44,522 bases of DNA from an uncultured Ignavibacteriota bacterium (GTDB lineage Bacteria; Bacteroidota; Ignavibacteria; UBA10030; UBA8401), in assembly GCA_903958625.1 (NCBI GenBank), contig CAJBTU010000328.1:1-44522 (forward strand). The letters run 5' to 3'. The first letter of the stretch is position 1, and each line of letters begins with the position of its first letter. The position numbers were made by a program, and so were the translations under genes. Shown here piece after piece: positions 23,201 through 41,354 of the stretch. The notes under the pieces are model-generated. The model was not told the DNA's origin. It saw nothing but the letters and a program-made list of their open reading frames with translations, and made no database searches.

Positions 23201-25070
23201 TTTTATCACTTTAACGGCAAACGACAGACAGGGACGGAAGAACAGCATCACGCGAGAGACAATTAAGATTCTCGTCAACCGTCCGCCGGTTGCCGTCGTT
23301 GATTCGCTCGTCTATTCGTGCACAGGCCAAACCATTCTCTTCAACGGCTCGCTGTCTTACGATCCGGACGGCGATGCGATTTCAACCAAATGGGATTTCG
23401 GTGATGGAGCATCATCGACAGAAACAAATCCTGCACACACGTATAAGACTCCCGGATACTATACGGTGAAACTGCTGCTCGACGATGGTTTTGCCGATCA
23501 GCCAACAACCGCAACGATTCCGATCATTATTGAAGGTTCGCCGGTCGCATATCAAACATTCACCGATACGACCATCTGCGTGAATGTTCCGCTTGATTTT
23601 GACGGAACCCGTAGCATCGACCCGAACGGACCGATCGGTTCTTACACATGGGATTTCGGCGACGGCATCAATTCGTTCGGATCGAAGGTATCGCATGCTT
23701 ACACCAAAGCAGGAACATATTTTACCACGCTTACCGTCGTTGGCAGCGGGAGCGGACGATGCAGCAAGGTCAGCCAGGCAACCTCAACGATCCATGTGAT
23801 TGAAGGACCCACGGCAAAGTTCACTATGCCCGAACGGGTAAGCATCGGAGAACTGGTCAGTATCAATCCCTCTATTTCCAAACCAAATGGTCCGGTCTCG
23901 TCCGTGCGGTGGAAACTGGGAAAAGACACAACGATCATTGCACTACAGCTGGAACAAGTACAATACCGGTTCAAAAAAGCTGGAACGTATGAAATAGAAT
24001 TGATGATCAACATCCAGTCAACGACGAACTGTAATTCTGCGGTAGCAATGAAAAAAATCATCGTGAATGAACCTCCCGCCATTGTCTGGAACATCCCGAC
24101 CGATGCGGCGCTTGGCGACCAACTGGTTCTTGATGCGTCAAAATCATTCGATGCTGACGGGATCATAGCGCAATATCATTGGAGGATCGACGGAAACCAT
24201 ATCGGAACAACACCGATCGTTACCGCCGCAAATCTCTCGGCAGGAAAGCATACCGTTGAACTGACGATCACCGACAATTCGCAAACACTATCACAATCCG
24301 TGAGCACACAAGCGACGGTCCGGATCAATTCAAAACCGAATCCGACATTTACTTTATCCGAACCGCTCTATGAAAATGAAACCGTCGTTTTGAAGCCCGA
24401 ACAGCTTAACGATGCCGATGGTGATCCTTTAACATTCATCTGGAGAGTGAACGATTCTGCCGTTCCATCCGATTCCGTCCGGCTTTCTGCGGGAAGAACG
24501 ATCGTAACGCTGATTGCGGATGACGGAAAGAAGGTGCGCAATTCGAAAGATTCCGTCCAGAAGGAATTCTTTGTGACGGCAAAGCCAACCTTTGAGATTG
24601 ACTATCCGGAGAATTGGATCGTGGGAACAGAGATCAACATCAATAAACTCTTCAACAGCGGCACAGTCAATTTCATTGCCAATAACGCCATACTGCCGGC
24701 GTGGACCCCGAAGACGTCCGGCAAACAATCTGCCGCCATCGCTTGGACTCCAAAAGGGAAACCGCTCTCCGAAACATTGTTGAATGTTACGGTATGGGAT
24801 TCGCTCGCCTTTTCCGAAAAACCGGCGGCGATGAAAATGATTTGGAATCCGTCGAACCCGACGATCATTCTTACGGCTCCTATGGTGAATCGTCCAGACA
24901 ATGCAAAAGTTATTTATGAATGGCGAAAAGGTAAGGCAGCATTTGGTGTCGGTAAAGTTGTAGATGTGTTGTTAAACAAAGGAAAGAATGTTTTCACCGT
25001 TCGCGCTATCGATCAGGAGATCATGGGAGCACATCCGGTGGAGATCGATATCGTAGTGATCTGCGAATAG
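20283..25070 (+). CDS. Giant multi-PKD-domain secreted protein (1595 aa)
   Basis: Many PKD signatures: YTWDFGDGINSFGSKVSHAYTKAGTYFTTLTV, TKWDFGDGASSTETNPAHTYKTPGYYTVKLLLDDG, YTWNFGDGTTGSEKNVVHEF. Signal peptide near the N-terminus. Confidence 0.92.
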   Translation: MQTSEFFRYPLAQKFFSGNSNRMGRRALFLLVMALSPSLIFSQEVFLSVSGKQALLKETGDKIHQYDFWIKPEANATTASLHLFDAGLGGVADVVNGIMETKTTFELIPFDALYSYANGKLSVTAKTAKAAEKLTARDEQQYYNRWKKFASLDASQKNGWILRVRAGDGNDVNSFQLIVADSNSVTSTRNDWSILAVDLSVCLYRVPQNAEMQLRPFQPAENSSRSFASFGEEQHQVGIRDEFGNFSKIPVAKGFFVPTLPNGMKNAWGLTISGSPLKVNNLVIKGISTPVLWDLKPVIVRQPQKPAIDAVQLASSSCNNVVLALTEATKKNLFVGVPIWSFGKTIVEKDSADIDFKRPGKSMVSLFVPTRGIYFPKYWRQEITVHVNAAPKAVITADKLIVAPGEIVTLSSASSSDPERSPLTYQWFVNGEFRGDEKILTLSSLLPTTYNVKLIVDDGAPNSSCTEAEAQQNIRINAQPYVDVNFRTIFGRSTTVPFVVENVADNDNDMLDFLWKGAGIVSATKGNSITVRHDKAGTYSLTLTANDRTNTSNSTFTQTIVYRVNAEPFPSFELVKQAAPGDMLNVRASATDDDNSSVAFSWTSSEGHALTGKDAQISFTSPGNFSVTLTADDGENVENSVQSITKTVHINAPPIPAIIAEKRSISARQKISAEKTIDADQKDLLYTWNFGDGTTGSEKNVVHEFQRSGRYVITLTVDDRQKQSNSIRSTTHELVINRYPTAQFSLPTQWEPTRPLQVDGSVSSDPDGAISAYAWYVNGKEVAQGVNPFITFDEAGDYAVALKVTDNSGFDDAVAIKTIPIHINYPPAVRWKMVPDVAEPNVAVTFEASASTDRETKSLKSVRWNFSDGTTAEGMSIKKTFSRSGTITVSAIVDDGAGFANSAQSLQKNILVNASPIIVTKTLIRTNSRRIVLDASQSYDIDKHAVHFEWLLPDRTRVNKASFTWDAPSGGVHFITLTANDRQGRKNSITRETIKILVNRPPVAVVDSLVYSCTGQTILFNGSLSYDPDGDAISTKWDFGDGASSTETNPAHTYKTPGYYTVKLLLDDGFADQPTTATIPIIIEGSPVAYQTFTDTTICVNVPLDFDGTRSIDPNGPIGSYTWDFGDGINSFGSKVSHAYTKAGTYFTTLTVVGSGSGRCSKVSQATSTIHVIEGPTAKFTMPERVSIGELVSINPSISKPNGPVSSVRWKLGKDTTIIALQLEQVQYRFKKAGTYEIELMINIQSTTNCNSAVAMKKIIVNEPPAIVWNIPTDAALGDQLVLDASKSFDADGIIAQYHWRIDGNHIGTTPIVTAANLSAGKHTVELTITDNSQTLSQSVSTQATVRINSKPNPTFTLSEPLYENETVVLKPEQLNDADGDPLTFIWRVNDSAVPSDSVRLSAGRTIVTLIADDGKKVRNSKDSVQKEFFVTAKPTFEIDYPENWIVGTEININKLFNSGTVNFIANNAILPAWTPKTSGKQSAAIAWTPKGKPLSETLLNVTVWDSLAFSEKPAAMKMIWNPSNPTIILTAPMVNRPDNAKVIYEWRKGKAAFGVGKVVDVLLNKGKNVFTVRAIDQEIMGAHPVEIDIVVICE

Positions 25071-27801: not shown

Positions 27802-30204
27802 CTAATGCTTCTTTCCCTCGATCGCTGCAATCTCGTTCAGCAGATCACGTTTTGTAAATCCCGATTTCTTCATCAGCGAAACCACGAATCCTTCCAGCTG
27901 TTCGCGGGTCTCATCATCGATCTCCATGGAGGTCATGATCATCACCGGAATTGTATATGTTGCCGAACTATGTTTCAATTGATAGGCAACGCTGAAGCCG
28001 GACATTTCCGGCATTACAAGGTCCAGAATAATCAGGTCCGGTTTTTCCTTTTCTGCCAGCACAAGTCCATCTTTGCCGTTATGCGCTTTGATCACCGTGC
28101 AGCCTTCAGCTTCCAGAATTATCTGGACAAGATCGGTAACCGACCGGTCATCGTCGATCACGAGAATCTTCGCAGAATTCTGCGCACTTCTTCCCTCCAC
28201 TTTTTTCACTGCAGCGATCAGATCATCTTTCTGCACCGGCTTCACAAAATATTCCACTGCGCCGAGACCAAACCCGACATTCCGTTCATCCACCATGGAG
28301 ATGATGATCACGGGAATCTCCCGGCAGAGCGGATGATCCTTCAGTTCCCGCAGCACCTGCCAGCCATCCTTCACCGGTATCAAAATATCGAGCGTGATCA
28401 CATCGGGTTTCCATAATTTCGCTTTTTCCAGCGCTTCTACTCCGTTCGTCGCTATCTCTACCATATAACCGGATTCCGTCAGATACGTGTGAAGCAGCGT
28501 GCGGGCATGCGGTTTATCTTCAACGATCAGCACCCTCTTTTGACGGCTACCGTCTGTGGTTTCCGAGATCTTTTTAAACACCTTCTCTGCCTCGTTCTCT
28601 ACCTGAACCATCATCGGAATTCGGGCAATGAATGTGCTTCCTTCACCGTATTCGCTCACAACAAACAGCGAACCGCCGTGCAGTTCCGTCAGTTTCTTGG
28701 TGATGGCAAGTCCAAGACCTGTTCCTTCGGTCTTCTTCGATCCCTGATCGGTCTGCTGGAACGGCTGGAACAATGATGTGATCTCTTCTTTGCGGATACC
28801 GACACCGAAATCCTGGACGGAAAATTCGATTTCGTTCTGCCTCCGTTTAGCAGAGATGATTACCTTCCCTTCTCCATGGCTGAACTTTATCGCATTCGTC
28901 ACAAGATTCAGCAGTATCTGTTTCATCCGCACGCCGTCTGCAATAATATCATCCAGTTCGCCATCCATGGATATCTCTAAAGAGATCTTCTTGGCTTCTA
29001 GCTGCGGCTGCACAACGTGCCTTACGCTGTCAAAAAGAGTGCGGATACCGACAGGAGCAAACCGGAGGTCCATTTTCCCGGCTTCGATCTTCGAAAGGTC
29101 CAAAATATCGTTGATAAGGTGGAGCAAATGTGTTCCGCTTGATTTGATCGCAGAGTTAAACTGTACCAGCGAATCGTGCTTTATTGCCGAGCCTTCTTCG
29201 GTGATCAGATCCGAAAATCCGATGATGGAGTTGAGCGGAGAGCGGAGTTCATGACTGAAAAAAGCCAAAAATCGTTTCAATTTTTCATGCGCTTCCATCG
29301 TTTGCGCACGCTGGATCTCAAGATCCACATTCTTTACGCGCAATTCATCGATCAAACCGCGGCGACTGACACCGACGGTAATCTCGCTTGCCAAAAGCGA
29401 AAGGAACGACAGTTCCTTCTCAACAAGTTCGCGCGAACTCTGGAGAAGGATCTCCAGCACGCCAAGTTTCTCTTTTTCAATACGAAGCGGAAGGGAGATG
29501 AGCGTTGTTACGGTCGAAGTGATCACCATTTCCGGTGCGAACGAGAACAATACGCTGCGCGCAAGATCGGTCGTAACTATCTTGTTCCCGGTGGAGAATG
29601 CCTCGATGCTGGAAAAGTTGGAATTGTTGGCAATCGAGAGTGCATAGATATTCTTCTGCAGATCGGTCAGCGGTAATTCCGGCGCCAGCAGTATCAATTG
29701 TTCGTCCGCCGGACGATGAAAATAGAGCAGAACATTCTGAGGAGGCAGTTCGTATCTTTTTGCGATCACACGGACCACTTCGGAACAGAGATCCTCCAAT
29801 TGACTTGCGGTATTGATCGCGTGAGAGATATCGAGTAGCGTCTCACGCTGGCGTTCTTCGATCTTCCGTTCGGTGATATCCGTTAGAAAAACGGACAAGC
29901 CGTTTTCATTTGGATAGATCCGGAAATCATACCACTTTTCCATTGTGAGATCTTTGGTATGATTTGTGGCGGTCTGGAAGGTGTTCGTTTCGATCGCAAG
30001 TTTGTATTTGATCCCGACATCGTGTTTTTCAAGGTTCGGAAAGATCTCGAAGATATTCTTTCCGATCACGTCGTTGCGTTTCCAATACGTTCCCTCTTCC
30101 GCCGCTTTGTTCCAATACGTGATGTTGAAATTTTTATCCAGAGCGAAAAATCCGCCGGAGATGCTTTCAAGTATTTCTTGTGAATTGAGATTGGGATGGG
30201 ACAT
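27802..30204 (-). CDS. Hybrid sensor histidine kinase: PAS, GAF-like region, HisKA, HATPase, two receiver domains (ORF extends to 30237)
   Basis: FSHELRSPLNSIIGFSD H-box, GTGLGLAITKKL, then receivers with PDVITLDILIPVKDGW and PDLIILDLVMPEMSGF phosphoacceptor Asp motifs. Confidence 0.94.
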   Translation of the reverse strand: MSHPNLNSQEILESISGGFFALDKNFNITYWNKAAEEGTYWKRNDVIGKNIFEIFPNLEKHDVGIKYKLAIETNTFQTATNHTKDLTMEKWYDFRIYPNENGLSVFLTDITERKIEERQRETLLDISHAINTASQLEDLCSEVVRVIAKRYELPPQNVLLYFHRPADEQLILLAPELPLTDLQKNIYALSIANNSNFSSIEAFSTGNKIVTTDLARSVLFSFAPEMVITSTVTTLISLPLRIEKEKLGVLEILLQSSRELVEKELSFLSLLASEITVGVSRRGLIDELRVKNVDLEIQRAQTMEAHEKLKRFLAFFSHELRSPLNSIIGFSDLITEEGSAIKHDSLVQFNSAIKSSGTHLLHLINDILDLSKIEAGKMDLRFAPVGIRTLFDSVRHVVQPQLEAKKISLEISMDGELDDIIADGVRMKQILLNLVTNAIKFSHGEGKVIISAKRRQNEIEFSVQDFGVGIRKEEITSLFQPFQQTDQGSKKTEGTGLGLAITKKLTELHGGSLFVVSEYGEGSTFIARIPMMVQVENEAEKVFKKISETTDGSRQKRVLIVEDKPHARTLLHTYLTESGYMVEIATNGVEALEKAKLWKPDVITLDILIPVKDGWQVLRELKDHPLCREIPVIIISMVDERNVGFGLGAVEYFVKPVQKDDLIAAVKKVEGRSAQNSAKILVIDDDRSVTDLVQIILEAEGCTVIKAHNGKDGLVLAEKEKPDLIILDLVMPEMSGFSVAYQLKHSSATYTIPVMIMTSMEIDDETREQLEGFVVSLMKKSGFTKRDLLNEIAAIEGKKH

Positions 30205-30223
30205 GCTGTAATGGGAAAAGTAA

Positions 30224-30270
30224 GATACCGGAAACATGATACTGGAATTTCCACTATCATGTTTCAGTAT
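30224..30270. repeat. Imperfect long inverted repeat upstream of the hybrid kinase
   Basis: GATACCGGAAACATGATACTGGAA-T-TTCCACTATCATGTTTCAGTAT. The inner arms match 11/12 (ATGATACTGGAA / TTCCACTATCAT). Confidence 0.7.
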
Positions 30271-30324: not shown

Positions 30325-30582
30325 TCATCGATTCAAGTGCGGAGGTTGAAATCCGCGGTATGTATCGAACTGTGAATCGTAAAAAACAAGATTAAAATTG
30401 CTGTCGCGTAATGTTCCGCCCGATGGATACAGATAGAATTCCGAAAGGTCCTCTGTTCTTGTCTTGGCAAGCAAACCGCCGGCCGTATAGAATTTTACCG
30501 TATAAAATCCCTGCGTGAACGGCGCTGTCTTCAATTGGCAGTGGAGATTCGCTTCAGTGAAAATGAAGATATCGTCGTTCAT
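30325..30582 (-). CDS. Small hypothetical protein overlapping the GroES-like gene end
   Basis: 85-aa ORF whose start overlaps the stop of the upstream gene. The FYTVKFYTAGGLLAKTRTEDLSEFYLYPSG beta-rich sequence looks like a real protein. Confidence 0.6.
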   Translation of the reverse strand: MNDDIFIFTEANLHCQLKTAPFTQGFYTVKFYTAGGLLAKTRTEDLSEFYLYPSGGTLRDSNFNLVFYDSQFDTYRGFQPPHLNR

Positions 30583-30977
30583 CCTCTCGCCGGCCCTATT
30601 CCCAGATCAGCAAGGGTGTCCGGACGCAGCAGCATCAGCAGATGCGATTGCTGAACGATCAAATATTGTTTCCCTTCGAATTCAATTTCGATCGCCGCAT
30701 CACGGAGAAACAACGCATAATCTCCCTCTTCCGCCTGCAACGGAATATATTTGACGGGATCCTTCGGCGCCGACCACGATTCCTGATCCATAAAATTCGG
30801 ATTGACCACCGGATACCCCGGACCCGCCTTGATGATATATCCCGCCTGCACTTTATCCTTTTCCTTCACACCGGGCGGAAGGTAGAGCCCGTGAGGTGTC
30901 TTTTCCTGTCCTTGATCAGGTTCGATCAGTATCCGGTCACCGACAAGGAATATTTTTTTCTTTAACGAAAGTGTCAT
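30579..30977 (-). CDS. GroES/Cpn10-like co-chaperone family protein (ORF extends to 31019)
   Basis: LVGDRILIEPDQGQEKTPHGLYLPPGVKEKDKVQAGYIIKAGPG. No groEL adjacent in the window. Confidence 0.8.
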   Translation of the reverse strand: MTLSLKKKIFLVGDRILIEPDQGQEKTPHGLYLPPGVKEKDKVQAGYIIKAGPGYPVVNPNFMDQESWSAPKDPVKYIPLQAEEGDYALFLRDAAIEIEFEGKQYLIVQQSHLLMLLRPDTLADLGIGPARG

Positions 30978-31123
30978 ACTGTTTGTGCACAAATATACGA
31001 AGTTTTTCTCTTTCTCCAACGACGAGCATTTATCATTTCTTAGAAAAGATACCGGTTGGACGCACCACGGCCCAACGCGGCTTGAATGTTACATCGGTTG
31101 AAAAAAGGAGAGAAAACCGGGGA

Positions 31124-32422
31124 TCACATTTGCAGTGTATGCATCTCCACGCCGACCGTTTTCAAAAATTCAAACGGCAATTCCCCTCCGGCAAAAATGA
31201 AGACGTAATCGTTAGGAATTTCGTTCTCTCCCCCGGGTGTGGAAAGGATAACGGAATTTTCCCGTATCTCCTTCACATCGGAACTGAAGATCACCGTGAG
31301 TTTTTTGTTCCGGGTGTATTCCTCGATATGCTGTTTATTGCGTTCTTTTATGCGGGTAAATTCCTCTTTCCGGTACGACAGCGTCACCGTGTTCCCTTTT
31401 TGAATAGCAAGACCAACGGCCGCTTCAATGGCTGAATCGCCTCCTCCTACCACCAGCAGATTGTTGTTGTTGAATTGCGACGCATCGATAAGTTTGTACA
31501 TCGCTTTCGACAATTCTTCTCCCGGCACGTTCAACTTCCGCGGGGTTCCGCGCCGTCCGAGGCCCAGCACAACCCTCGCCGCCGTCATCTTCCGCTGAGA
31601 CGTTGTCAGAATAAAATGACCGTTTGCTTTTTCCACCGAGAGGACCTTTTCGTTGATGGAGATGTTCAGGGAAGCGTGAGCGATAATCTTTTGCCACACT
31701 TCAAGCAGTGCTTCCTTTTTTACTTCCGTTAACTTCAACTTACCCCACAACGGCAATTCTACGGGAGATGTCATCACAACTTTTGCGCGCGGAAAATGCA
31801 GGATTGCGCCTCCTATATCGCTTTGCTCAATAATAATGGATTTCAGATTCAACGATTTCGCCATCAAGCCCGACGCCAAACCGGACGGACCAGCACCGAC
31901 GACAACAATATCATAATCGGCATTATGGGGAGATAATTTTGACGCGATATATTCTACGGCAGCCTTTCCTTGCGTAACCGCATTTTTAATCAAACCGATG
32001 CCGCCAAGTTCACCCACAATGAATACCCCGGGCACGCTTGTTTCATAATGTTCGTCGAGAACCGGAACACCGGCGCTGCGGCTTGGTTTTGCCGGAAGAA
32101 GCTCAATGGCACCGACCGGACAGGCATCGGCACATAATCCGTGTCCGACACATTTCGCTCCGTGTATCAGCGCCGCCTTCATATCAATGAGGGCGATGAC
32201 ATCACCTTCCGGACAAGCACCGACACAACCTCCGCATCCCAAACAATTGGTAATGTCAATATGCGGGTGCATTGTTGTTGCTTCGTGCAAACCGGTCACT
32301 TTCAGTTCCTGGAATTTTTTCCGCGCTTTCGCTTCCTTTTTTTTCACACTCCGTACATACGGAATGACGGTGATCGAAATCAGGAGCGTTGTAACAACCA
32401 GTGTAATAAGGGTTTCATTCAT
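31124..32422 (-). CDS. Membrane-anchored ferredoxin-like (2x[4Fe-4S]) / thioredoxin-reductase-like FAD-NAD(P) oxidoreductase
   Basis: N-terminal TM segment, CLGCGGCVGACPEGD and CVGHGLCADACPVGA clusters, DIVVVGAGPSGLASGLMAKSL FAD site, LLVVGGGDSAIEAAVGLA NAD(P) site, FIFAGGELPFEFL. Confidence 0.88.
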   Translation of the reverse strand: MNETLITLVVTTLLISITVIPYVRSVKKKEAKARKKFQELKVTGLHEATTMHPHIDITNCLGCGGCVGACPEGDVIALIDMKAALIHGAKCVGHGLCADACPVGAIELLPAKPSRSAGVPVLDEHYETSVPGVFIVGELGGIGLIKNAVTQGKAAVEYIASKLSPHNADYDIVVVGAGPSGLASGLMAKSLNLKSIIIEQSDIGGAILHFPRAKVVMTSPVELPLWGKLKLTEVKKEALLEVWQKIIAHASLNISINEKVLSVEKANGHFILTTSQRKMTAARVVLGLGRRGTPRKLNVPGEELSKAMYKLIDASQFNNNNLLVVGGGDSAIEAAVGLAIQKGNTVTLSYRKEEFTRIKERNKQHIEEYTRNKKLTVIFSSDVKEIRENSVILSTPGGENEIPNDYVFIFAGGELPFEFLKTVGVEMHTLQM

Positions 32423-32428
32423 AATGTT

Positions 32429-34054
32429 TTAAAATCGCATTCCGATTTCAGCAAAGACCCTGTAACTATTCATTGTAGTATCAAAAACACCGTCCATGGA
32501 AAGAGACGTATACCACATTTTCGAAAGACGGTAATAGAGATTGGCCGTTGCTGTTTGAGTTGTATACGTCTGCTTCAGGGAAACAATAGTGTATTGATAG
32601 TAATCGTAGCGCAGTGAGACCGACAGGGCATAAAAGAATGTCCGGTCGAAATCGACTGTATAATTATTCCCTTCCGAAAATTCACCGACAATGCGTGCAT
32701 AGCGGACGCCTGCATTGACATCCGAATTCAGGATATCGCTCATCCGCAGTGATGTACCCAAATTATACGCATCACGCGTATTTCCGCTGCGCGTGCGGTA
32801 CGTTCCATTGGTGGAGAGCGTAATGAAATACGGAAGTCGGAACGTGACGCTTCCGCGAAAACCCTGCAGGATATTCTTATCGAACAGTGTATCCGAGATG
32901 GTTTTCATGGATTCAAAAAGATACACGCTCCGCGATGCGTCGTACCCGATGCTTGTGGTAAGCCATTGCACGGGATAATAATTGACCGTGAAGAATGTGT
33001 TGGACAATCTTAATGCCCCTGTCCGCACTCCGTTCGTGATATCGTTCAGTTCAAGTTCCGTACTTTCGTACAAAGAAAGTTCGGGACCAAGTGACAATGA
33101 ATTTTGCAGATAGATGAATTCCCGGTCGAGTCTGGAACTGACCATCTGGCGTCCATAGGCGATCGTTCCATCAAACTGATGGAAGAAATCGATTCCCTGC
33201 CGGTAGTTCAGGAAGAACGATGCTTTGGTATCATTGGTATTTACCGAAAGAGAACGGTTGGAAACCTGCGCACCGCCCAGCACACCGGCAGTGAAATTAT
33301 CATACCGGTAGAACATCTGGAAACCGTCAAACGTCCCCATTCCGCCGACATAGCGGGATGTCATCCTGCCGAAACCATAACCATAGTCGGACCCGGCAAC
33401 ATCCCGCTGGACAGTGAATTCATAGATGCGATGATTCAATCCCGACGAACTTCCGTACATTGCATAGGCTTGTTTTGATTCGTAATAACTCCTGTCATAG
33501 AAGGAAAGCATCGCCCCTGTGCCGAAGAGATTCTGCACATCCAATCGAAGCACCGTTGAGGGCTGACTGACATTAAAACGTGAATTTTCTGCCGTGATGG
33601 AATTGTATTGTACACCGACCCTTCCGGAAACGATGTTCTCCGTGCTCTGAACAATAACCACCGCCGGTATTTTCATGGATGCTCCGGAAGAATCACGCTT
33701 AACCGAGGCGGCCGTATCCGTTTTTGCTTGTTCATTACCCGCTATGGTTTCAACAATCTCTTTTACGATCACCGCTTCATTCCCTACGGAAAATGGCGAT
33801 TTCTGTGAAACGATCTGAGCGGCGCTGGAACGACGCGAAACGGCGGTAACGGCCACAGAACCAATCTCTTTTCCTGCATTGTAAATTTTCAACGTATCTC
33901 CCACCTCAATGCGGCGTTCTCTTCCGGCATCAATATACACAACCGATGATGCGACATAGGAAATCGCAAAGCGAAGTTCTTTTTTTGTTTGGCTATTGCC
34001 AAAGGCCGCAAACAACGATGTAAATAAAATTATGGTAAGGAAAATCTTTCTCAT
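32429..34054 (-). CDS. Outer-membrane beta-barrel protein candidate with an N-terminal small beta domain
   Basis: Signal peptide, alternating amphipathic strands over the C-terminal ~370 aa, C-terminal aromatic ...RVFAEIGMRF. Embedded in a multiheme cytochrome operon. Confidence 0.7.
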   Translation of the reverse strand: MRKIFLTIILFTSLFAAFGNSQTKKELRFAISYVASSVVYIDAGRERRIEVGDTLKIYNAGKEIGSVAVTAVSRRSSAAQIVSQKSPFSVGNEAVIVKEIVETIAGNEQAKTDTAASVKRDSSGASMKIPAVVIVQSTENIVSGRVGVQYNSITAENSRFNVSQPSTVLRLDVQNLFGTGAMLSFYDRSYYESKQAYAMYGSSSGLNHRIYEFTVQRDVAGSDYGYGFGRMTSRYVGGMGTFDGFQMFYRYDNFTAGVLGGAQVSNRSLSVNTNDTKASFFLNYRQGIDFFHQFDGTIAYGRQMVSSRLDREFIYLQNSLSLGPELSLYESTELELNDITNGVRTGALRLSNTFFTVNYYPVQWLTTSIGYDASRSVYLFESMKTISDTLFDKNILQGFRGSVTFRLPYFITLSTNGTYRTRSGNTRDAYNLGTSLRMSDILNSDVNAGVRYARIVGEFSEGNNYTVDFDRTFFYALSVSLRYDYYQYTIVSLKQTYTTQTATANLYYRLSKMWYTSLSMDGVFDTTMNSYRVFAEIGMRF

Positions 34055-34060
34055 TGTATT

Positions 34061-34870
34061 TTATTCTGCCAGACCTTGGGGATGACACCGGTAACAGGCT
34101 TGACTTTGATAGCTGTAATTCCGGATACCACCGTGATGACTGTCCGTTGATGATTTGTTATGCTCATGACAATTGATGCACTCGAACAACTGATAATTCG
34201 ATTGTGTTGTATGACAATCCCCGCACGAATTCCACCTGCCCGGACGGTGTTTTGCACCGGTACCGATCGGAAAATTACTATGTGGAAACAATGCCGCCGG
34301 CTGCCACGTTAATGCACGGTGGCAGAATGCGCAATCGGTCGGGAACCTTGCCGTTTGATGATCCGGATTTCTTGTGGCAGCATATTCGGTTTGATGACAC
34401 GCGATACATTGCATTGGAGTTCCGCGAAAAATATTATTCATATGACACGATTTGCAGGCAACGGCTGCGTGAGCCCCGCGCGTAGGAAACTGAGTCATAT
34501 TATGGTCGAAATCAACCTGCCACGAAACGGCACTTTGCCGGTGACACTGACTGCATTCCGTACTGAATCCTGCCGTCCGGTGATTGATCGATATCGCCGC
34601 ATCATAATCGTTTTTATGACAGGAGATGCAGACCTTCGATAATCCAACAAACTTTAAGGTCGTGTGACAATTTCTGCAAGCGGTATTTCTATGCTGTCCT
34701 TCCAGAACATATCCGGCGGCAGCATGATTGAATTTCATCGGCAAAGAAAGTTCATTCCATCCTTCGGTCGAATGACAATCGCTGCAGATATAATTCAGCG
34801 GACCGTGCGGCGAATCCTGACCAAACAGTGCCGAGCTGACGGTGATCAGCAGAATGGAAATCACTCGCAT
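34061..34870 (-). CDS. Decaheme c-type cytochrome (10 CXXCH); caps shared with the 37-heme protein (ORF extends to 34900)
   Basis: 10 CXXCH motifs counted by reading. Signal peptide MRVISILLITVSSALFGQ. Organisation 2 + 2x3 + 2 hemes. Confidence 0.93.
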   Translation of the reverse strand: MRVISILLITVSSALFGQDSPHGPLNYICSDCHSTEGWNELSLPMKFNHAAAGYVLEGQHRNTACRNCHTTLKFVGLSKVCISCHKNDYDAAISINHRTAGFSTECSQCHRQSAVSWQVDFDHNMTQFPTRGAHAAVACKSCHMNNIFRGTPMQCIACHQTEYAATRNPDHQTARFPTDCAFCHRALTWQPAALFPHSNFPIGTGAKHRPGRWNSCGDCHTTQSNYQLFECINCHEHNKSSTDSHHGGIRNYSYQSQACYRCHPQGLAE

Positions 34871-34872
34871 CA

Positions 34873-37671
34873 CTATAAGGTCCTGCCTGTCGGGTGACAT
34901 TTATAGCACGCGGCGCTTGAATACAAATACCCCGTGCGTCCTCGGTGTTCCGAATCCATGCTCGCTTTGTCGTGTTCGTGACAATTGATACATTCGAACA
35001 CTTTGGAATTCGTCGGATTTGTATGACAATCGCTGCACAAAGTCCACCGGCCCGGTCTGTGTTTTGCCGACGCATCGATCGGGAAAAACGGCGTATGATT
35101 GAATGTTGACGGTTTCCATAACGACGTCGTGTGACACGATTTGCAATCTGTCGGATACTTTGCCGCAGCATGGTTCGGATTGACCGCGGTATTATAGTCT
35201 TGAGTATGGCATGTATAACAATCCGTCGGCGTTCCTGCAAATTTTCCGCCGACATGACAATTTGCGCATGGTGCAGAAACGTGTGATCCCGTCAGCGGGA
35301 AGATGGTTTTATTATGATCAAACATCGCCGGACTCCAGCCATTCATCGAATGACAGCTGGTACAGTTATGGTCAAAATTACCCGTAACGTGATTGGGATC
35401 TGCCGCGCTGTTAAAATCGGACAAATGACAGGTATAACAGACCGTTGTTGTTCCTTTATACTGTCCGTTCTTGTGGCAATCTGAACATAACACCGCAGCG
35501 TGGGAACCCTGCAGCGGAAAGCTCGTATTCGCATGGTTGAATGTTGACGGTTTCCAAGCAATGTTCGAATGACACGTTAAACAATCGTGCGAAAATTGTG
35601 CTGTAACATGGTTTGGATTTGTTGTGCCGGTAAAATTGTTCATATGGCAGGAATAACAATCGGACGGTAATCCTTTGTAAACACCGCTCGAATGGCACGA
35701 CACACAAGACGCAGAAACGTGAGCGCCGATCAGCGGATAGTTTGTGCCGGCGTGGTTGAATGTCGACGGTTTCCAGGCAATGTTCGAATGACACGTTAAA
35801 CAATCGTGCGAGAATTGTGCCGACACGTGATTCGGATTTGTTGTGCCGGTAAAGTTGCTCATATGACAACTGAAACAATCGGATGGCAGTCCTTTATACA
35901 CCCCGTTTTTATGACAATCACTGCAAATAACAGCACCGTGTGCACCAACCAGCGGAAAGTTTGTTGCTGCGTGATTGAATGTTGAAGGTTTCCACGCCAT
36001 CGTATTATGACATGATAAACAGTCATGCGAAAATTGCGCTGCGGCATGATTTGGATTTACTGTTGTGATGAATGAATTTTGATGACAACTGTAACAATCG
36101 GACGGTAATCCCTTAAACACACCGTTCTTATGGCACGATTCGCACGCAATAGTTACGTGAGCTCCAACAAGCTGAAAATTGGTCTTTGCGTGACTGAATG
36201 TAGACGGTTTCCAAGCATTCATCGAATGACATGTTAAACAATCACGGCTGAATTGCGCGACGGCATGATTTGGGGCAACAGTTTTTGCAAAATCCTGCTG
36301 ATGGCATGAGTAACAGTCGCTCGGCAAACCGATGAATTTACCGGAGGTATGACACGAGGCGCAATTGGTAGCCGCGTGAGCACCAATAAGCGGAAAATTT
36401 GTCTTGGCATGATCGAATGTCGATGGTTTCCACCCGTTCATGGAATGGCATGAGACACAATCCTGACTAATGAGCGCCGTTTGATGATTCGGCGAAGTTG
36501 TCTTTTTATAATCAACCTGATGGCAGGTGAAGCATTCGGTATTTAATCCTTTATAAATACCGGCGGAATGACACGAAGCGCAATCGGTGTTTTTATGAAC
36601 ACCAAGGAGCGGATAATTCGTCTTCGCATGATCAAACGTGGAGGGTTTCCATGCGAGCAGATTGTGACAGGTAAGACAGTTACGATCGAACTGCGCTTTA
36701 AGATGGCTTGGTTGCTTAACATCATTGAAATCTTTTGTATGACAGGTAAAACAATCTTTCGTCAATCCTTTAAACTGTCCTGTGCTATGGCAGGAAGAAC
36801 ATTCCGTTGCCATGTGGGCGCCGGCCAGCGCAAAATCCGTTTTGCCGTGATCGAATGTCGAAGGTTTCCAGCCGTTGATGGTATGGCACGTCAGGCAGTC
36901 GCGGGAAAATTTTCCTGTGGAATGATTCGGCGCAGTTGTCTTTGCAAAATCCTTCTGATGACAGGAATAACAATCGGACGGAAGAACGGTGTATTTGCCG
37001 CCGGCATGACAACCGGAACAATCAACCGACCGGTGTGCGCCGGCCAGCGGGAAATTGGTCTTCGCATGATCGAATGTTGCCGGCTTCCATCCGTTCATTG
37101 TATGACACGTTAAGCACGAATGAGTAAAGCGGCCCTGCACGTGGTTTGGTGCAACGGCATTGGTAAAATCCTTTTGATGGCAGAAAAAACATTCGTGTGA
37201 AAGTCCGGTAAATTTATTGTTGGCATGACATGATGCGCAATCGACGCTTTGATGAGCGCCGATCAGCTGAAAATCAGTCTTGGAATGTTGGAAGATTGAC
37301 GGCTTCCATGCATTGAGCGTATGACAGGTAAGACATTCGCGGGAGAATTTCCCTAATTGATGATTTGGTGTAAACGCCCGGACAAAATCCTTTTGATGAC
37401 AGGAGAAGCACGCCGTCGGTGTTCCGGAAAATTTTTTTGCCGTATGGCACTGAATGCACGCAACATTGCTATGCTGACCGTCCAATGCAAAGCCGGTCAC
37501 CACGTGACTGAATTTCATCGGACGGGCCAATTCCTTCCACGAATCGGTCGTATGACAATCCGTACAGGCGATGGAAAGCGGCCCGTGAGGAGATTTCTGA
37601 GCGTTGCCGTACGAAAGAAATATTACATTCAAAGCCAGAATAATGATCGTATGGAAGGCGATCCTTTTCAT
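34873..37671 (-). CDS. Giant 37-heme c-type cytochrome built from 11 triheme modules (ORF extends to 37698)
   Basis: 37 CXXCH motifs counted by reading. Signal peptide MKRIAFHTIIILALNVIFLSYGNAQ. Organisation 2 + 11x3 + 2 hemes. Start overlaps the upstream stop (ATGA). Confidence 0.95.
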   Translation of the reverse strand: MKRIAFHTIIILALNVIFLSYGNAQKSPHGPLSIACTDCHTTDSWKELARPMKFSHVVTGFALDGQHSNVACIQCHTAKKFSGTPTACFSCHQKDFVRAFTPNHQLGKFSRECLTCHTLNAWKPSIFQHSKTDFQLIGAHQSVDCASCHANNKFTGLSHECFFCHQKDFTNAVAPNHVQGRFTHSCLTCHTMNGWKPATFDHAKTNFPLAGAHRSVDCSGCHAGGKYTVLPSDCYSCHQKDFAKTTAPNHSTGKFSRDCLTCHTINGWKPSTFDHGKTDFALAGAHMATECSSCHSTGQFKGLTKDCFTCHTKDFNDVKQPSHLKAQFDRNCLTCHNLLAWKPSTFDHAKTNYPLLGVHKNTDCASCHSAGIYKGLNTECFTCHQVDYKKTTSPNHQTALISQDCVSCHSMNGWKPSTFDHAKTNFPLIGAHAATNCASCHTSGKFIGLPSDCYSCHQQDFAKTVAPNHAVAQFSRDCLTCHSMNAWKPSTFSHAKTNFQLVGAHVTIACESCHKNGVFKGLPSDCYSCHQNSFITTVNPNHAAAQFSHDCLSCHNTMAWKPSTFNHAATNFPLVGAHGAVICSDCHKNGVYKGLPSDCFSCHMSNFTGTTNPNHVSAQFSHDCLTCHSNIAWKPSTFNHAGTNYPLIGAHVSASCVSCHSSGVYKGLPSDCYSCHMNNFTGTTNPNHVTAQFSHDCLTCHSNIAWKPSTFNHANTSFPLQGSHAAVLCSDCHKNGQYKGTTTVCYTCHLSDFNSAADPNHVTGNFDHNCTSCHSMNGWSPAMFDHNKTIFPLTGSHVSAPCANCHVGGKFAGTPTDCYTCHTQDYNTAVNPNHAAAKYPTDCKSCHTTSLWKPSTFNHTPFFPIDASAKHRPGRWTLCSDCHTNPTNSKVFECINCHEHDKASMDSEHRGRTGYLYSSAACYKCHPTGRTL
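34993..37410 (-). repeat. In-gene tandem array of 11 triheme-encoding units (219 bp each, final unit 228 bp)
   Basis: Unit CxxCHxxDF...PNH...FSRDCLTCHxxxxWKPSTFxHxKTxFPLxGAH...CxxCHxxGxxxGLPSD is 73 aa in the modules counted. At DNA level ATGTTCGAATGACACGTTAAACAATCGTGCG recurs 219 bp apart (about 35561 and 35780). Confidence 0.92.
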
Positions 37672-39308
37672 TGCTTGTCCGTATGACAGTCTGTGCATAA
37701 AAGCCCCAGTGGTTTATATTTGGTGATCTTCCGCCCATTGACGGTATATTGTGCATGACACTTCATGCATTGCACTCCGGCGTGCTTGCCCGTTAAAGCA
37801 AAACGGGCTTCGGTATCATGATTAAACGTTACCTTTTTCCAGGATACCGAGCTATGACATTTTTCACAATTCGTTACGGCATTCACGGCAAATTGACCAT
37901 CATGTTCATCGGTATGACATGAGGTACATTCTTTGCGAACAGCAGTGTATTTTACCGGCGTGCCGTCCGTTGTTTTTTTGTGGCATTGATCGCATCGAAC
38001 TTCAGCATGTTTACCCTGCAACGGAAAGGTTGTTTTGTCGTGAGAAAAAAGAAGTTTATCCCAGGCTGAAACTGTATGGCACGTTTCGCACCCTTTGGTC
38101 ATTATCTTTGCAAATTGGCCCTTGTGAATATCTTCATGGCAAGTGATGCATTCTATTGATCCATCCCAGTGGAATTTACGAGTGCTCTTTGCTTTCACTG
38201 CACCGCCGGTATGGCAGGCTACGCAGGGAATGGCCGTATGAGCGCCGGCCAGCGGAAACCGCGTAGTTTGGTGCTGCTGATAAGCGAAACGGACAATGGT
38301 AAATCCTTCTTCCGTATGGCACGATTCGCACTTTCCTTTATCAGCACGATATAAGAACTGCAGTGCATGAGCATCGGCATGGCAGTTCGCACACACCTGA
38401 AATTTTGTGATACGGTGACCAAGTTCTCCGCTAGCGTTCAAGCTTTTGGGATTATTGTTGTGACATTGTTCGCACTTCAACTGAGCATGCTTCCCTTTCA
38501 GCGGATATTGCGTGGACGCATGATCGAACTGTCCTTTTGAGATCTTATGAAAATCCTCCGTGGAGTGACATGCATTGCACTCCTGTTTGAACTTACCCTT
38601 ATGCGGATCGACGTGACAATTGCTGCACGAGGAGAATTCCATTTTTACAAATCGGACTGTCTTACCATCACCAAGCATTTTGTTGTGACACTTCATACAT
38701 TCCGTTTTTTTATGACTCCCCGTCAGCGGATAATTCGTCCGGTCATGGGAGAACTTGAGAACGGCCTTCCACTGGTCGATGGTATGACACGATGAACATT
38801 CCCGTCCGGCAAACTGACCTTTATGCTTATCCTCATGGCACGAAGAACAATTTGCCGACAATCCCATGAATGTTCTTTTCTTATACTCGTCCGCTAATTT
38901 CTGCACGTCCGGCGCCGCAATGCGCTCTTTGTTGTGACAATCCCTGCATTCAATTTTTTTATGCTTCCCTTCCAGAACAAATCCCACGGTGGAATGATCG
39001 AATGTTTTCGTATCGAACCGAATGATCTGAAAATTCCGTCCGTGATGTTCCTTGTGGCACTCTTCGCACAACTTTGCACCGATGGTCGCGTGAAATCCTT
39101 TTTTCTGTTTCATCCTTCCATTGATCTCTTTATGACAATCCAGGCATCGTTCGTTTGAAAGGGACTTCCCCACGGAATGGCATTTCGTGCAGTTCTCGAC
39201 TCCTTCCAGGTCCTTATGGGCATTCGTCAAATCACCGGGGGAAATTTGCGCAAACGCGTACGTTGACAAAAGGACGAACAAAGCGATATTGACGAAACAA
39301 CGGAGCAT
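37668..39308 (-). CDS. 20-heme c-type cytochrome
   Basis: 20 CXXCH motifs counted by reading. Signal peptide MLRCFVNIALFVLLSTYAFAQ. Repeated CxxCHxDxHKGQF...CxxCH...FxHDxTxYPLxGKH...CxxCH modules. Confidence 0.94.
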   Translation of the reverse strand: MLRCFVNIALFVLLSTYAFAQISPGDLTNAHKDLEGVENCTKCHSVGKSLSNERCLDCHKEINGRMKQKKGFHATIGAKLCEECHKEHHGRNFQIIRFDTKTFDHSTVGFVLEGKHKKIECRDCHNKERIAAPDVQKLADEYKKRTFMGLSANCSSCHEDKHKGQFAGRECSSCHTIDQWKAVLKFSHDRTNYPLTGSHKKTECMKCHNKMLGDGKTVRFVKMEFSSCSNCHVDPHKGKFKQECNACHSTEDFHKISKGQFDHASTQYPLKGKHAQLKCEQCHNNNPKSLNASGELGHRITKFQVCANCHADAHALQFLYRADKGKCESCHTEEGFTIVRFAYQQHQTTRFPLAGAHTAIPCVACHTGGAVKAKSTRKFHWDGSIECITCHEDIHKGQFAKIMTKGCETCHTVSAWDKLLFSHDKTTFPLQGKHAEVRCDQCHKKTTDGTPVKYTAVRKECTSCHTDEHDGQFAVNAVTNCEKCHSSVSWKKVTFNHDTEARFALTGKHAGVQCMKCHAQYTVNGRKITKYKPLGLLCTDCHTDKQ

Positions 39309-39907
39309 TATTCCATTTTCCCTAACTGTTTGAGTGCATCAACGGCATTCTTTGCTTCATGGCTTTCCGGTGCGACCAGTATCAGTTTTTTCCATGTCTG
39401 TTCGGCTTCTTTCCGTTTCCCCTGTCGGGCATAAATGGCTCCCTTATTATAGAGAGCGGTTGAATTCTTCGGGTCTTTGGTGAGCAGAACATTGGTGATT
39501 TTCATGGCTTCATCAATATTGCCTGTTTGAGCATAGCAAACGCTCAGATCTAAAAGAACTGATGAGTTCACCGGTTCCAACTTACGTGCCCGTTCAAAAT
39601 ATTGGATCGCCTCTTTGGGATTATGCCCATCCATCAACATGGAGGCAAGCATCGTGAGATGCGAAAGATTTTTAGGATCTTTATCGACCGATTTTTTCAA
39701 AGCGTCGAGCTGTTGTGAATACTCCTTGGCAACATTTCCTTTGCCCGGTGCCTGGGGCTGACCGGCAGGAAATTCTTTGTCCGTCTTTTCGGGCTGTTCG
39801 GAATTCTTCAGCATCCTTCCGCTGTCGCGTGTGAGAACAAAAACGATCGCGGCGATGAGGATAAAGGGAAAAATAAGTCTGCGGGACCAGATGATCAATG
39901 TTTTCAT
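39308..39907 (-). CDS. Membrane-anchored tetratricopeptide repeat protein (ORF extends to 40072)
   Basis: N-terminal TM (RRLIFPFILIAAIVFVLT) followed by TPRs (AIQYFERARKLEPVNSSVLLDLSVCYAQTGNIDEAM). Confidence 0.85.
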   Translation of the reverse strand: MKTLIIWSRRLIFPFILIAAIVFVLTRDSGRMLKNSEQPEKTDKEFPAGQPQAPGKGNVAKEYSQQLDALKKSVDKDPKNLSHLTMLASMLMDGHNPKEAIQYFERARKLEPVNSSVLLDLSVCYAQTGNIDEAMKITNVLLTKDPKNSTALYNKGAIYARQGKRKEAEQTWKKLILVAPESHEAKNAVDALKQLGKME

Positions 39908-39908
39908 A

Positions 39909-40787
39909 TCAGAATATCCAAGTATAGCCGAACGTGATAGCAACGCCCACATGCACCAGCAAGACAACAAACATGATAATGCTGAAGGGTAAGTGAATAA
40001 CATGCCAATAATGGAAAATCTCCTGAACTTTTTCCAGCACGGCAATGCGCTGCTGAAAAACAATATGGTCATTCACAATAGCAACGACCTTTTTCATTGA
40101 ATGCTTATCGACAGAATATTTATTCAGCGTATTTTTGATCAGCATAATTCTACGCTTTTGCGAAAGATCGCTGATCAAAAGATACCATAGAAGGGTGAAT
40201 AATCCTGCCTCATCGATATGCGCCATCGGTTTCCCCAATTCACGAAGAGCTTTCACCGCCTGCTCGTTCAGCGCATAGGTTGAATGAAGCGAATCAAGCA
40301 TCATCTTTCCTTTTTCTTCAAGTTCTTTCGCACTTAATTCATTTCCTTCGATATTCTTCGGTATATGCTGATACAAATACCGACCAAGCACACCGCTAAA
40401 CGCAACAGCGGACATGCTCCAGAAACTCACCGCCACCAATCCGCCGAACTTGAACGTGGTATGATATAACACCAACACCGGTCCGATCAGACAGAGAAAA
40501 ATATGGAACTCGAGAAAATATTTGATCTTTCCGATCTGCCTGAATGCACGGACTCTCTTTCGGCTGGAATACATGATCACACCGATCGTGACCATTGCGG
40601 TTCCGATGATACCATATCCGTGACTTTCTATACCGGAAGGTTTAAGATCGTTATACCGTTCATGAAACGGCCTTTCCTCCATCGGCAGGAAATAGTATTC
40701 TACATTTCTGGCAAGAACAGCTACCGCTATCAAAATCCCGAACAATATTAGAAAGGAAAGAAATAAGCGATGGGAAAGTTGATTCAT
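39909..40787 (-). CDS. Diheme b-type cytochrome integral membrane protein (ORF extends to 40814)
   Basis: Multiple TM helices and two Hx13H pairs (HIFLCLIGPVLVLYH and HLPFSIIMFVVLLVH), the spacing expected for bis-His ligation of two b hemes. First gene of the cytochrome operon. Confidence 0.75.
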   Translation of the reverse strand: MNQLSHRLFLSFLILFGILIAVAVLARNVEYYFLPMEERPFHERYNDLKPSGIESHGYGIIGTAMVTIGVIMYSSRKRVRAFRQIGKIKYFLEFHIFLCLIGPVLVLYHTTFKFGGLVAVSFWSMSAVAFSGVLGRYLYQHIPKNIEGNELSAKELEEKGKMMLDSLHSTYALNEQAVKALRELGKPMAHIDEAGLFTLLWYLLISDLSQKRRIMLIKNTLNKYSVDKHSMKKVVAIVNDHIVFQQRIAVLEKVQEIFHYWHVIHLPFSIIMFVVLLVHVGVAITFGYTWIF

Positions 40788-41354
40788 GATTGTTATAGGT
40801 GGTAAATCGGACAAATTGGTTTATTACTTACATGGTACTGAATTTCAACTGTTTTTGAAAGAATTGATATCACATACTTCATTGGTAACAAGAGTGTTTT
40901 GTCTTGTATTAACATTAATAATCGTTCTACCTGTAGGCACACAAAAGGAGAGGAATAATGATAGGCTGTTTCGATTTCACGCAAAAAACACAACTTGTTC
41001 CTTCGTTTGTCCATTGTTCATATTTTATAAAATCTCTTAACAACCTATACCAAATGCAATGCCACTTTTTAACGTGTAAATATTAGATAAATTGTAATGT
41101 TGATCTATCGGCTGTGTCTATATTTTAAAATGTGTCTATTTATTTTACATGCTCAACGGGGATTTATCTTTCTTAAGGGACAAATGAAATATGACATGAT
41201 TTGATGTAGATTTGCTATGGATTTCATCTTAGTCAATTGTTGCTGGATGGTTTTTTTCGAGATGGGATCAGCGGTGTTCAACCGTAAGACTGCAAGTTAA
41301 TGGTAATTAAAGAAGCGGAATTGAAACACAATTATTTATTTGTCGATATCGTAA

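What the first reader, a model, noticed from the sequence alone, without database searches (positions are those of the whole stretch)
34061..37671. Two paralogous cytochromes with identical caps but different numbers of triheme modules (2 vs 11)
The 10-heme protein reads as 2 + 2x3 + 2 hemes and the 37-heme protein as 2 + 11x3 + 2. Their N-terminal caps (SPHGPL...CxDCHxTxxWxEL..PMKFxH...GxxLxGQHxNxAC) and C-terminal caps (AKHRPGRW..C.DCHT...FECINCHEHxKxSxDSxH...ACY.CHP) align directly. This implies expansion or contraction of an internal module, consistent with heme wires of different reach.
Basis: partly seen in the sequence, partly recalled or inferred. Interest (0 to 1): 0.88.

Follow-up and report, generated by a model that had tools for sequence, protein, structure and literature searches.

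The report
Modular heme wires of quantised length
Next to a predicted outer-membrane pore this bacterium encodes two related proteins studded with hemes, one short (10) and one long (37), and in related bacteria the long kind comes in sizes from 10 to 64 hemes that grow almost only in whole three-heme steps, a natural length series for asking how far a protein wire carries electrons out of a cell.

Summary
P0001 (37 CxxCH) and P0002 (10 CxxCH) are adjacent paralogs with homologous, not identical, caps (54% and 52% identity). The caps are degenerate modules, so the heme count is better written 1+3n (n=12 and n=3). The search for intermediates succeeded: the pair lies in a conserved cluster (inner-membrane b-type protein, 20-heme cytochrome, variable cytochrome(s), 22-strand barrel, FAD/Fe-S oxidoreductase) found across Bacteroidota, Ignavibacteria and Calditrichota, and in the isolate Emticicia oligotrophica. 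In 89 complete relatives the variable cytochrome has 9-64 hemes and 79 obey 3n+1; in a second set 19 of 20 do, the exception being a masked gene. Partners stay fixed: 20 hemes (23 in some lineages) and a barrel of about 540 aa. In the window's family the short paralog is a separate clade fixed at 10 hemes; the long one ranges from 22 to 43 and grows by recent in-frame 219-bp duplications in its centre. Gene content, order and inner-membrane motifs match the porin-cytochrome complex PCC3 of iron oxidisers, whose extracellular cytochrome is also known to vary. Best reading: a PCC3-like trans-envelope electron conduit with an outer wire of modular length. Linearity was not tested: the AlphaFold model failed (pTM 0.24).

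The parts
34873..37671 (-). Long paralog 'H37' (P0001), 932 aa, 37 CxxCH, Sec-type signal peptide
34061..34870 (-). Short paralog 'H10' (P0002), 269 aa, 10 CxxCH
37411..37593 (-). N-terminal cap of H37 (residues 27-87)
   Evidence: 54% identical to the H10 N-cap
35131..37410 (-). Triheme repeat region of H37 (73-aa / 219-bp unit)
   Evidence: spacing 25/32/16 repeated without deviation; identity matrix
34876..35130 (-). C-terminal cap of H37 (residues 848-932, AKHRPGRW...CHP)
   Evidence: 52% identical to the H10 C-cap
34631..34813 (-). N-terminal cap of H10 (residues 20-80)
34064..34318 (-). C-terminal cap of H10 (residues 185-269)
37668..39308 (-). 'H20' (P0003), 546 aa, 20 CxxCH, constant-size partner, proposed periplasmic relay
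   Evidence: 20 hemes in 77 of 94 unique relatives and 23 in 13; profile hits MtrF and the 6r2q_A chain (MtrA by my own knowledge)
32429..34054 (-). Outer-membrane beta-barrel, 541 aa: 22 predicted strands (141-540) plus an N-terminal small beta domain
   Evidence: AF2 pLDDT 82.8, pTM 0.68; Foldseek hits are outer-membrane barrels
39909..40814 (-). Inner-membrane protein with two HX13H motifs and SGxxG (start probably ATG at 40784)
   Evidence: H104, H118, W270, H288 and S140/G141/G144 100%, H274 98% across 61 relatives plus the window
31124..32422 (-). Membrane-anchored FAD (YpdA-like) oxidoreductase with two 4Fe-4S motifs
   Evidence: Pfam and NCBIfam scans; conserved in the cluster
39308..40072 (-). 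TPR protein between the inner-membrane protein and H20; present in part of the relatives

Best explanation
The cluster encodes a PCC3-like trans-envelope electron conduit of the Bacteroidota/Ignavibacteria group. The inner-membrane two-b-heme protein and the FAD/Fe-S oxidoreductase exchange electrons with quinone or NAD(P)H. The fixed 20-heme cytochrome crosses the periplasm. A 22-strand barrel opens the outer membrane. One or two cytochromes built as N-cap, n triheme modules and C-cap carry electrons through or beyond the barrel. The caps dock to conserved partners, so modules can be added or removed in frame (219 bp) in the centre without disturbing docking; this gives a short fixed 10-heme form and a long variable form in the same operon. 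Shown here: gene content and synteny, modular 3n+1 arithmetic, fixed partners, separate short and long lineages, recent central duplications, barrel fold. Inferred: location, order of electron flow, linear heme array, docking by caps, reach.
For: Cluster conserved in named Ignavibacteria, Kryptoniota, Calditrichota, KSB1, Bacteroidales, Flavobacteriaceae, Saprospiraceae and Fibrobacteria contigs, and on plasmid pEMTOL02 of Emticicia oligotrophica DSM 17448, with 23 and 40 hemes. Complete variable cytochromes: 79/89 are 3n+1 counting CX2-4CH; second set 19/20, the exception holding masked bases. H20 is 20 or 23 hemes in 90 of 94; the barrel is 544 +/- 39 aa with no correlation to heme count (Spearman 0.11, p 0.39), median gap from variable cytochrome to barrel 1 nt. 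H10 orthologs are one clade (100/100), all of 10 hemes (one with a CX3CH), the long ones another. Recent duplications in the centre. Two-barrel genomes (G016, G021, G049) are those with the cytochromes in separate loci, each beside its own barrel. Inner-membrane motifs and gene order match PCC3 as described in PMC5566968 and PMC12016527.
Against: No localisation, redox or growth data. The AF2 model of the long cytochrome failed. Homology to proteobacterial PCC3 proteins could not be tested by sequence. The cluster also occurs in lineages with aerobic cultured members (Flavobacteriaceae), where extracellular respiration is not obvious. With two variable cytochromes and one barrel in this operon the stoichiometry is unexplained.
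Confidence: 0.6

Rival explanations
1. The variable cytochrome is an electron store (capacitor): heme number sets charge capacity, not reach.
For: Capacitor roles are proposed for GSU1996 (PMC10138318) and for very large MHCs of Saprospiraceae (PMC11495043). The wide range, up to 64 hemes, fits a quantity with no geometric optimum.
Against: The cytochrome is coupled to a barrel with a median gap of 1 nt, and its caps are conserved as if both ends dock. Storage alone does not need a barrel.
Confidence: 0.2
2. Module number drifts neutrally by unequal recombination between repeats; length has no selected function beyond a minimum.
For: Congeners differ (31, 34, 37, 40, 43 hemes) and duplications are recent and central. 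A short protein with few repeats offers little substrate for slippage, which alone could explain why H10 is frozen.
Against: H10 is fixed in all 16 orthologs down to 51% identity and H20 is nearly fixed. No habitat or selection test was made, so this cannot be excluded; it is compatible with the conduit reading and rivals only the claim of tuned reach.
Confidence: 0.35
3. The variable cytochromes are periplasmic conductors between the membranes and do not project outside.
For: Sec signal but no lipobox and no T9SS sorting domain seen in P0001 (sequence). GSU1996-type triheme polymers are periplasmic.
Against: By the rough scale of 1 nm per heme (inference) 37-64 hemes exceed a periplasm of about 20 nm, and the 10-64 range does not suit a fixed gap, while the constant H20 does.
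Confidence: 0.2

Closest known systems
PCC3 porin-cytochrome complex of Fe(II) oxidisers (He 2017, PMC5566968; Gallionellaceae 2023, PMC10734462)
   Same: Inner-membrane protein with two HX13H and SGxxG; periplasmic MHC with about 21 hemes; long variable extracellular MHC (10-35 in Gallionellaceae, up to 85 elsewhere); barrel; order IMP, cyt-p, cyt-e, porin as Slit_1446-1449; 22-39 aa per heme
   Different: FCB-group lineages; FAD/Fe-S oxidoreductase in the cluster; near-strict 3n+1 heme number (Gallionellaceae counts listed include 11, 12, 14, 15, 18, 26, 29, 33, 35); separate fixed 10-heme paralog in the window's family; sequence homology not testable here
GSU1996/GSU0592/GSU2210 triheme 'nanowires of hemes' (Geobacter)
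   Same: Tandem triheme domains in one chain; the family profile matches chain 3ov0 (E 2e-10)
   Different: No porin partner described in the source read; one His-Met heme per domain (PMC10138318), whereas these modules have three invariant non-CxxCH His and no conserved Met
MtrCAB/MtoAB
   Same: Cytochrome and barrel conduit; the H20 profile hits MtrF and the 6r2q_A chain
   Different: Barrel predicted with 22 strands and no family hit; larger heme numbers
Burkholderiales S13 and Rifle PCCs (PMC7399161)
   Same: Two large MHCs (24 and 49 hemes) before a porin; larger one varies by insertion or deletion of CxxCH domains while its neighbours are 96-98% identical
   Different: Proteobacterial; three genomes; no quantised series described in the passages read

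Membership tests
PCC3 | Barrel gene with the cytochromes | tested here: met
   22-strand barrel, pLDDT 82.8; directly downstream of 65 of 90 variable cytochromes
PCC3 | Inner-membrane protein with HX13H on TM3 and TM5 and SGXXG on TM4 | tested here: met
   H104-x13-H118, W270-x3-H274-x13-H288, S140-G-x-x-G144, 98-100% conserved; the W before the first HX13H is absent
PCC3 | Five transmembrane helices in that protein | tested here: inconclusive
   Simple hydropathy finds four clear segments
PCC3 | Order IMP, periplasmic MHC, extracellular MHC, porin | tested here: met
   Window order IMP, (TPR), H20, H37, H10, barrel; compare Slit_1446-1449
PCC3 | 22-39 aa per heme; very many hemes | tested here: met
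   25.2, 26.9 and 27.3 aa per heme for H37, H10 and H20
PCC3 | One MHC periplasmic and one extracellular | not testable with these tools
   Needs localisation experiments
PCC3 | Sequence homology to S. lithotrophicus PCC3 proteins | not testable with these tools
GSU1996 triheme nanowires / TIGR04257 | Match to the nanowire_3heme model | tested here: not met
   No hit for P0001 or P0002 at E<=0.01; P0003 below cutoff
GSU1996 triheme nanowires / TIGR04257 | One His-Met heme per triheme domain | tested here: not met
   Three invariant non-CxxCH His, no conserved Met
MtrAB | MtrB-family barrel with a DmsE/MtrA-family decaheme | tested here: not met
   No Pfam or NCBIfam hit for the barrel; DmsE-family hits for P0001 and P0003 far below cutoff and none for P0002

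The most novel reading that the evidence does not exclude
The short paralog is a fixed-length plug that spans the outer membrane in the barrel, and the long paralog is an extracellular cable whose reach is tuned by whole triheme modules between shared docking caps. The family would then be a natural length series of one-chain heme wires on constant partners, with length under selection.
Probability: 0.25. Interest if true: 0.8.

Novelty: new variant of a known kind. Interest (0 to 1): 0.6.

Why it matters
Variation in heme number between homologous giant cytochromes was called an 'exciting unexplored area' (PMC7399161). This family supplies a clean case: about a hundred relatives, one module, a 3n+1 rule that held in a second sample, constant partners, and a cultured host (Emticicia oligotrophica) that carries the cluster on a plasmid. 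It makes it testable whether wire length sets reach, charge storage, or nothing. It also offers a gene-cluster context for giant cytochromes that have been reported in Bacteroidota without description (PMC11495043).

Tried and rejected
One search used a wrong CxxCH pattern (TGYNNNTGYCAY) and was ignored; one search repeats it correctly. AF2 of P0001 gave pLDDT 54.5 and pTM 0.24, so no fold search or heme geometry was attempted on it. 'Identical caps' was rejected (52-54%). Chance repetition was rejected (spacing invariant; BLASTP E 2e-69). Assembly collapse was rejected for the window (module DNA identity at most 73%) but may lower counts in some MAGs. Apparent exceptions to 3n+1 often carry CX3CH, CX4CH or wider motifs near the C-terminus; the rest include truncated or altered genes and were not all resolved. 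Plasmid hits in Alteromonas, Methylophaga, Methylocystis and Spirosoma were set aside as a related porin-less type with a 7-heme cytochrome.

Full report
OBSERVATION. H37 (P0001, 34873-37671, minus strand) has 37 CxxCH and H10 (P0002, 34061-34870) has 10. Heme spacing is invariant: 36 16 25, then 32 16 25 ten times, then 36 15 28 in H37; 36 16 25 33 16 25 36 15 28 in H10. There is no Cys outside the heme motifs in either. The caps are homologous (54% over 61 columns, 52% over 85) and closer to each other than to internal modules, so 'identical' is too strong. The first heme plus complete triplets gives 1+3n (n=12 and 3); the caps are degenerate modules. Over 95 modules from 11 proteins, 22 of 73 positions are at least 90% conserved, including three non-CxxCH His (17, 42, 53), one candidate sixth ligand per heme, and no Met.

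SURROUNDINGS. The minus strand carries, in order: an inner-membrane protein (39909-40814), a TPR protein (39308-40072), a 20-heme cytochrome H20 (37668-39308), H37, H10, a barrel (32429-34054) and an FAD/Fe-S oxidoreductase with an N-terminal membrane segment (31124-32422). Genes are nearly contiguous. The barrel is predicted with 22 strands (residues 141-540), pLDDT 82.8, pTM 0.68; Foldseek matches are ushers, porins and receptors, i.e. general barrel similarity, not a named family.

RELATIVES. In 60 related genomes, 30 encode relatives of H10. Reading those loci showed a near-unvarying 20-heme partner, an unvarying 10-heme short paralog in the window's family, and a long paralog of varying length, with synteny of the partners. 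A scan of genome contigs with the H20 alignment returned 80 named loci, most with the same cluster as far as the contig reaches. Emticicia oligotrophica DSM 17448 has it on a plasmid, with 23 and 40 hemes. In a sample of 395 genomes of the phylum, 39 (31 of 172 genera) carry H20.

ARITHMETIC. Of 89 complete distinct variable cytochromes, 79 have 3n+1 hemes when CX2-4CH is counted, against one third expected if counts were indifferent to the module (binomial p 2e-27). The sequences are related, so this p-value overstates independence. As a check, 30 regions were then taken from genomes found by a separate search. Twenty complete variable cytochromes not in the first set gave 10 to 58 hemes and 19 were 3n+1; the exception contains masked bases. 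H20 was 20 hemes in 21 and 23 in one. Over the first set H20 has 20 or 23 hemes in 90 of 94, and barrel length does not follow heme number (Spearman 0.11, p 0.39).

HOW LENGTH CHANGES. In a tree of caps, 16 short proteins are one clade and 11 long ones the other (100/100), so the duplication precedes the family. The short ones all have 10 hemes (one uses CX3CH). The long ones vary. Compared with its nearest relative G004 the window's modules 1-6 pair in order (71-90%) and module 9 pairs with G004 module 10 (79%), while G004 modules 7-9 are 92-96% identical to one another and 86-93% in DNA; G001 shows a two-module block copied; G016 modules 5-7 are alike. Growth is therefore by whole in-frame modules in the centre. 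C-caps can differ: G004, G007 and G001 long proteins have a CX3CH/CX4CH-type cap, and G001's short protein has a similar one.

MECHANISM. Gene content and order match PCC3, defined in iron oxidisers as an inner-membrane protein with two HX13H and SGXXG, a periplasmic MHC (median 21 hemes), an extracellular MHC (median 34) and a porin (PMC5566968; order Slit_1446-1449 in PMC12016527). The window's inner-membrane protein has both HX13H pairs and SGxxG at 98-100% in 61 relatives. In Gallionellaceae the extracellular PCC3 MHC has 10-35 hemes and the published models are long and mostly linear (PMC10734462). Location by analogy: H20, constant in size, suits the periplasm; the variable ones suit the outside. 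This is inference. Each variable cytochrome tends to sit beside a barrel, and genomes in which short and long forms lie in separate loci have two barrels, while those with one operon have one. Whether H10 and H37 share or alternate on the one barrel is open.

LIMITS. AF2 failed on H37 (pLDDT 54.5, pTM 0.24), so 'linear wire' was not tested. Profile similarity to 3ov0 (E 2e-10) and to the 16-heme cytochrome 1z1n (E 1e-10) is of modules and not of overall shape. Homology with proteobacterial PCC3 was not testable. No experiment shows electron transfer.

NOVELTY. Large modular cytochromes, PCC3 and variable heme numbers are known. What I did not find described in the papers read is this FCB-group cluster, its near-strict 3n+1 series from 10 to 64, the fixed/variable paralog pair, and the module-by-module mechanism. 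The literature library is partial (open-licence papers), so priority is not certain.

Noticed in passing
window 31124-32422: In the FAD/Fe-S oxidoreductase the second cluster motif reads CxxHxxCxxxCP (C91, H94, C97, C101 at 100% in 68 relatives plus the window), suggesting a His-ligated or modified 4Fe-4S cluster.
   Followed up: partly
L050, L058, L065 C-termini: Some C-caps use CX3CH, CX4CH or CX5CH in place of CxxCH, so simple CxxCH counting under-reports hemes.
   Followed up: yes
window 30579-31019: A Cpn10 (GroES-like) gene follows the cluster and is retained beside it in several relatives.
   Followed up: no
window 27802-30237: Hybrid PAS histidine kinase with two receiver domains downstream of the cluster.
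   Followed up: no
window 20283-25070: 1595-aa protein with at least ten PKD domains.
   Followed up: no
L167, L168, L169, L170: Plasmids of Alteromonas, Methylophaga, Methylocystis and Spirosoma carry a distant inner-membrane homolog beside a 7-heme cytochrome, without a porin named in the annotation.
   Followed up: partly
L101, L121, L144, L162, L165: Pairs of variable cytochromes of different length in one locus recur outside the window's family.
   Followed up: partly
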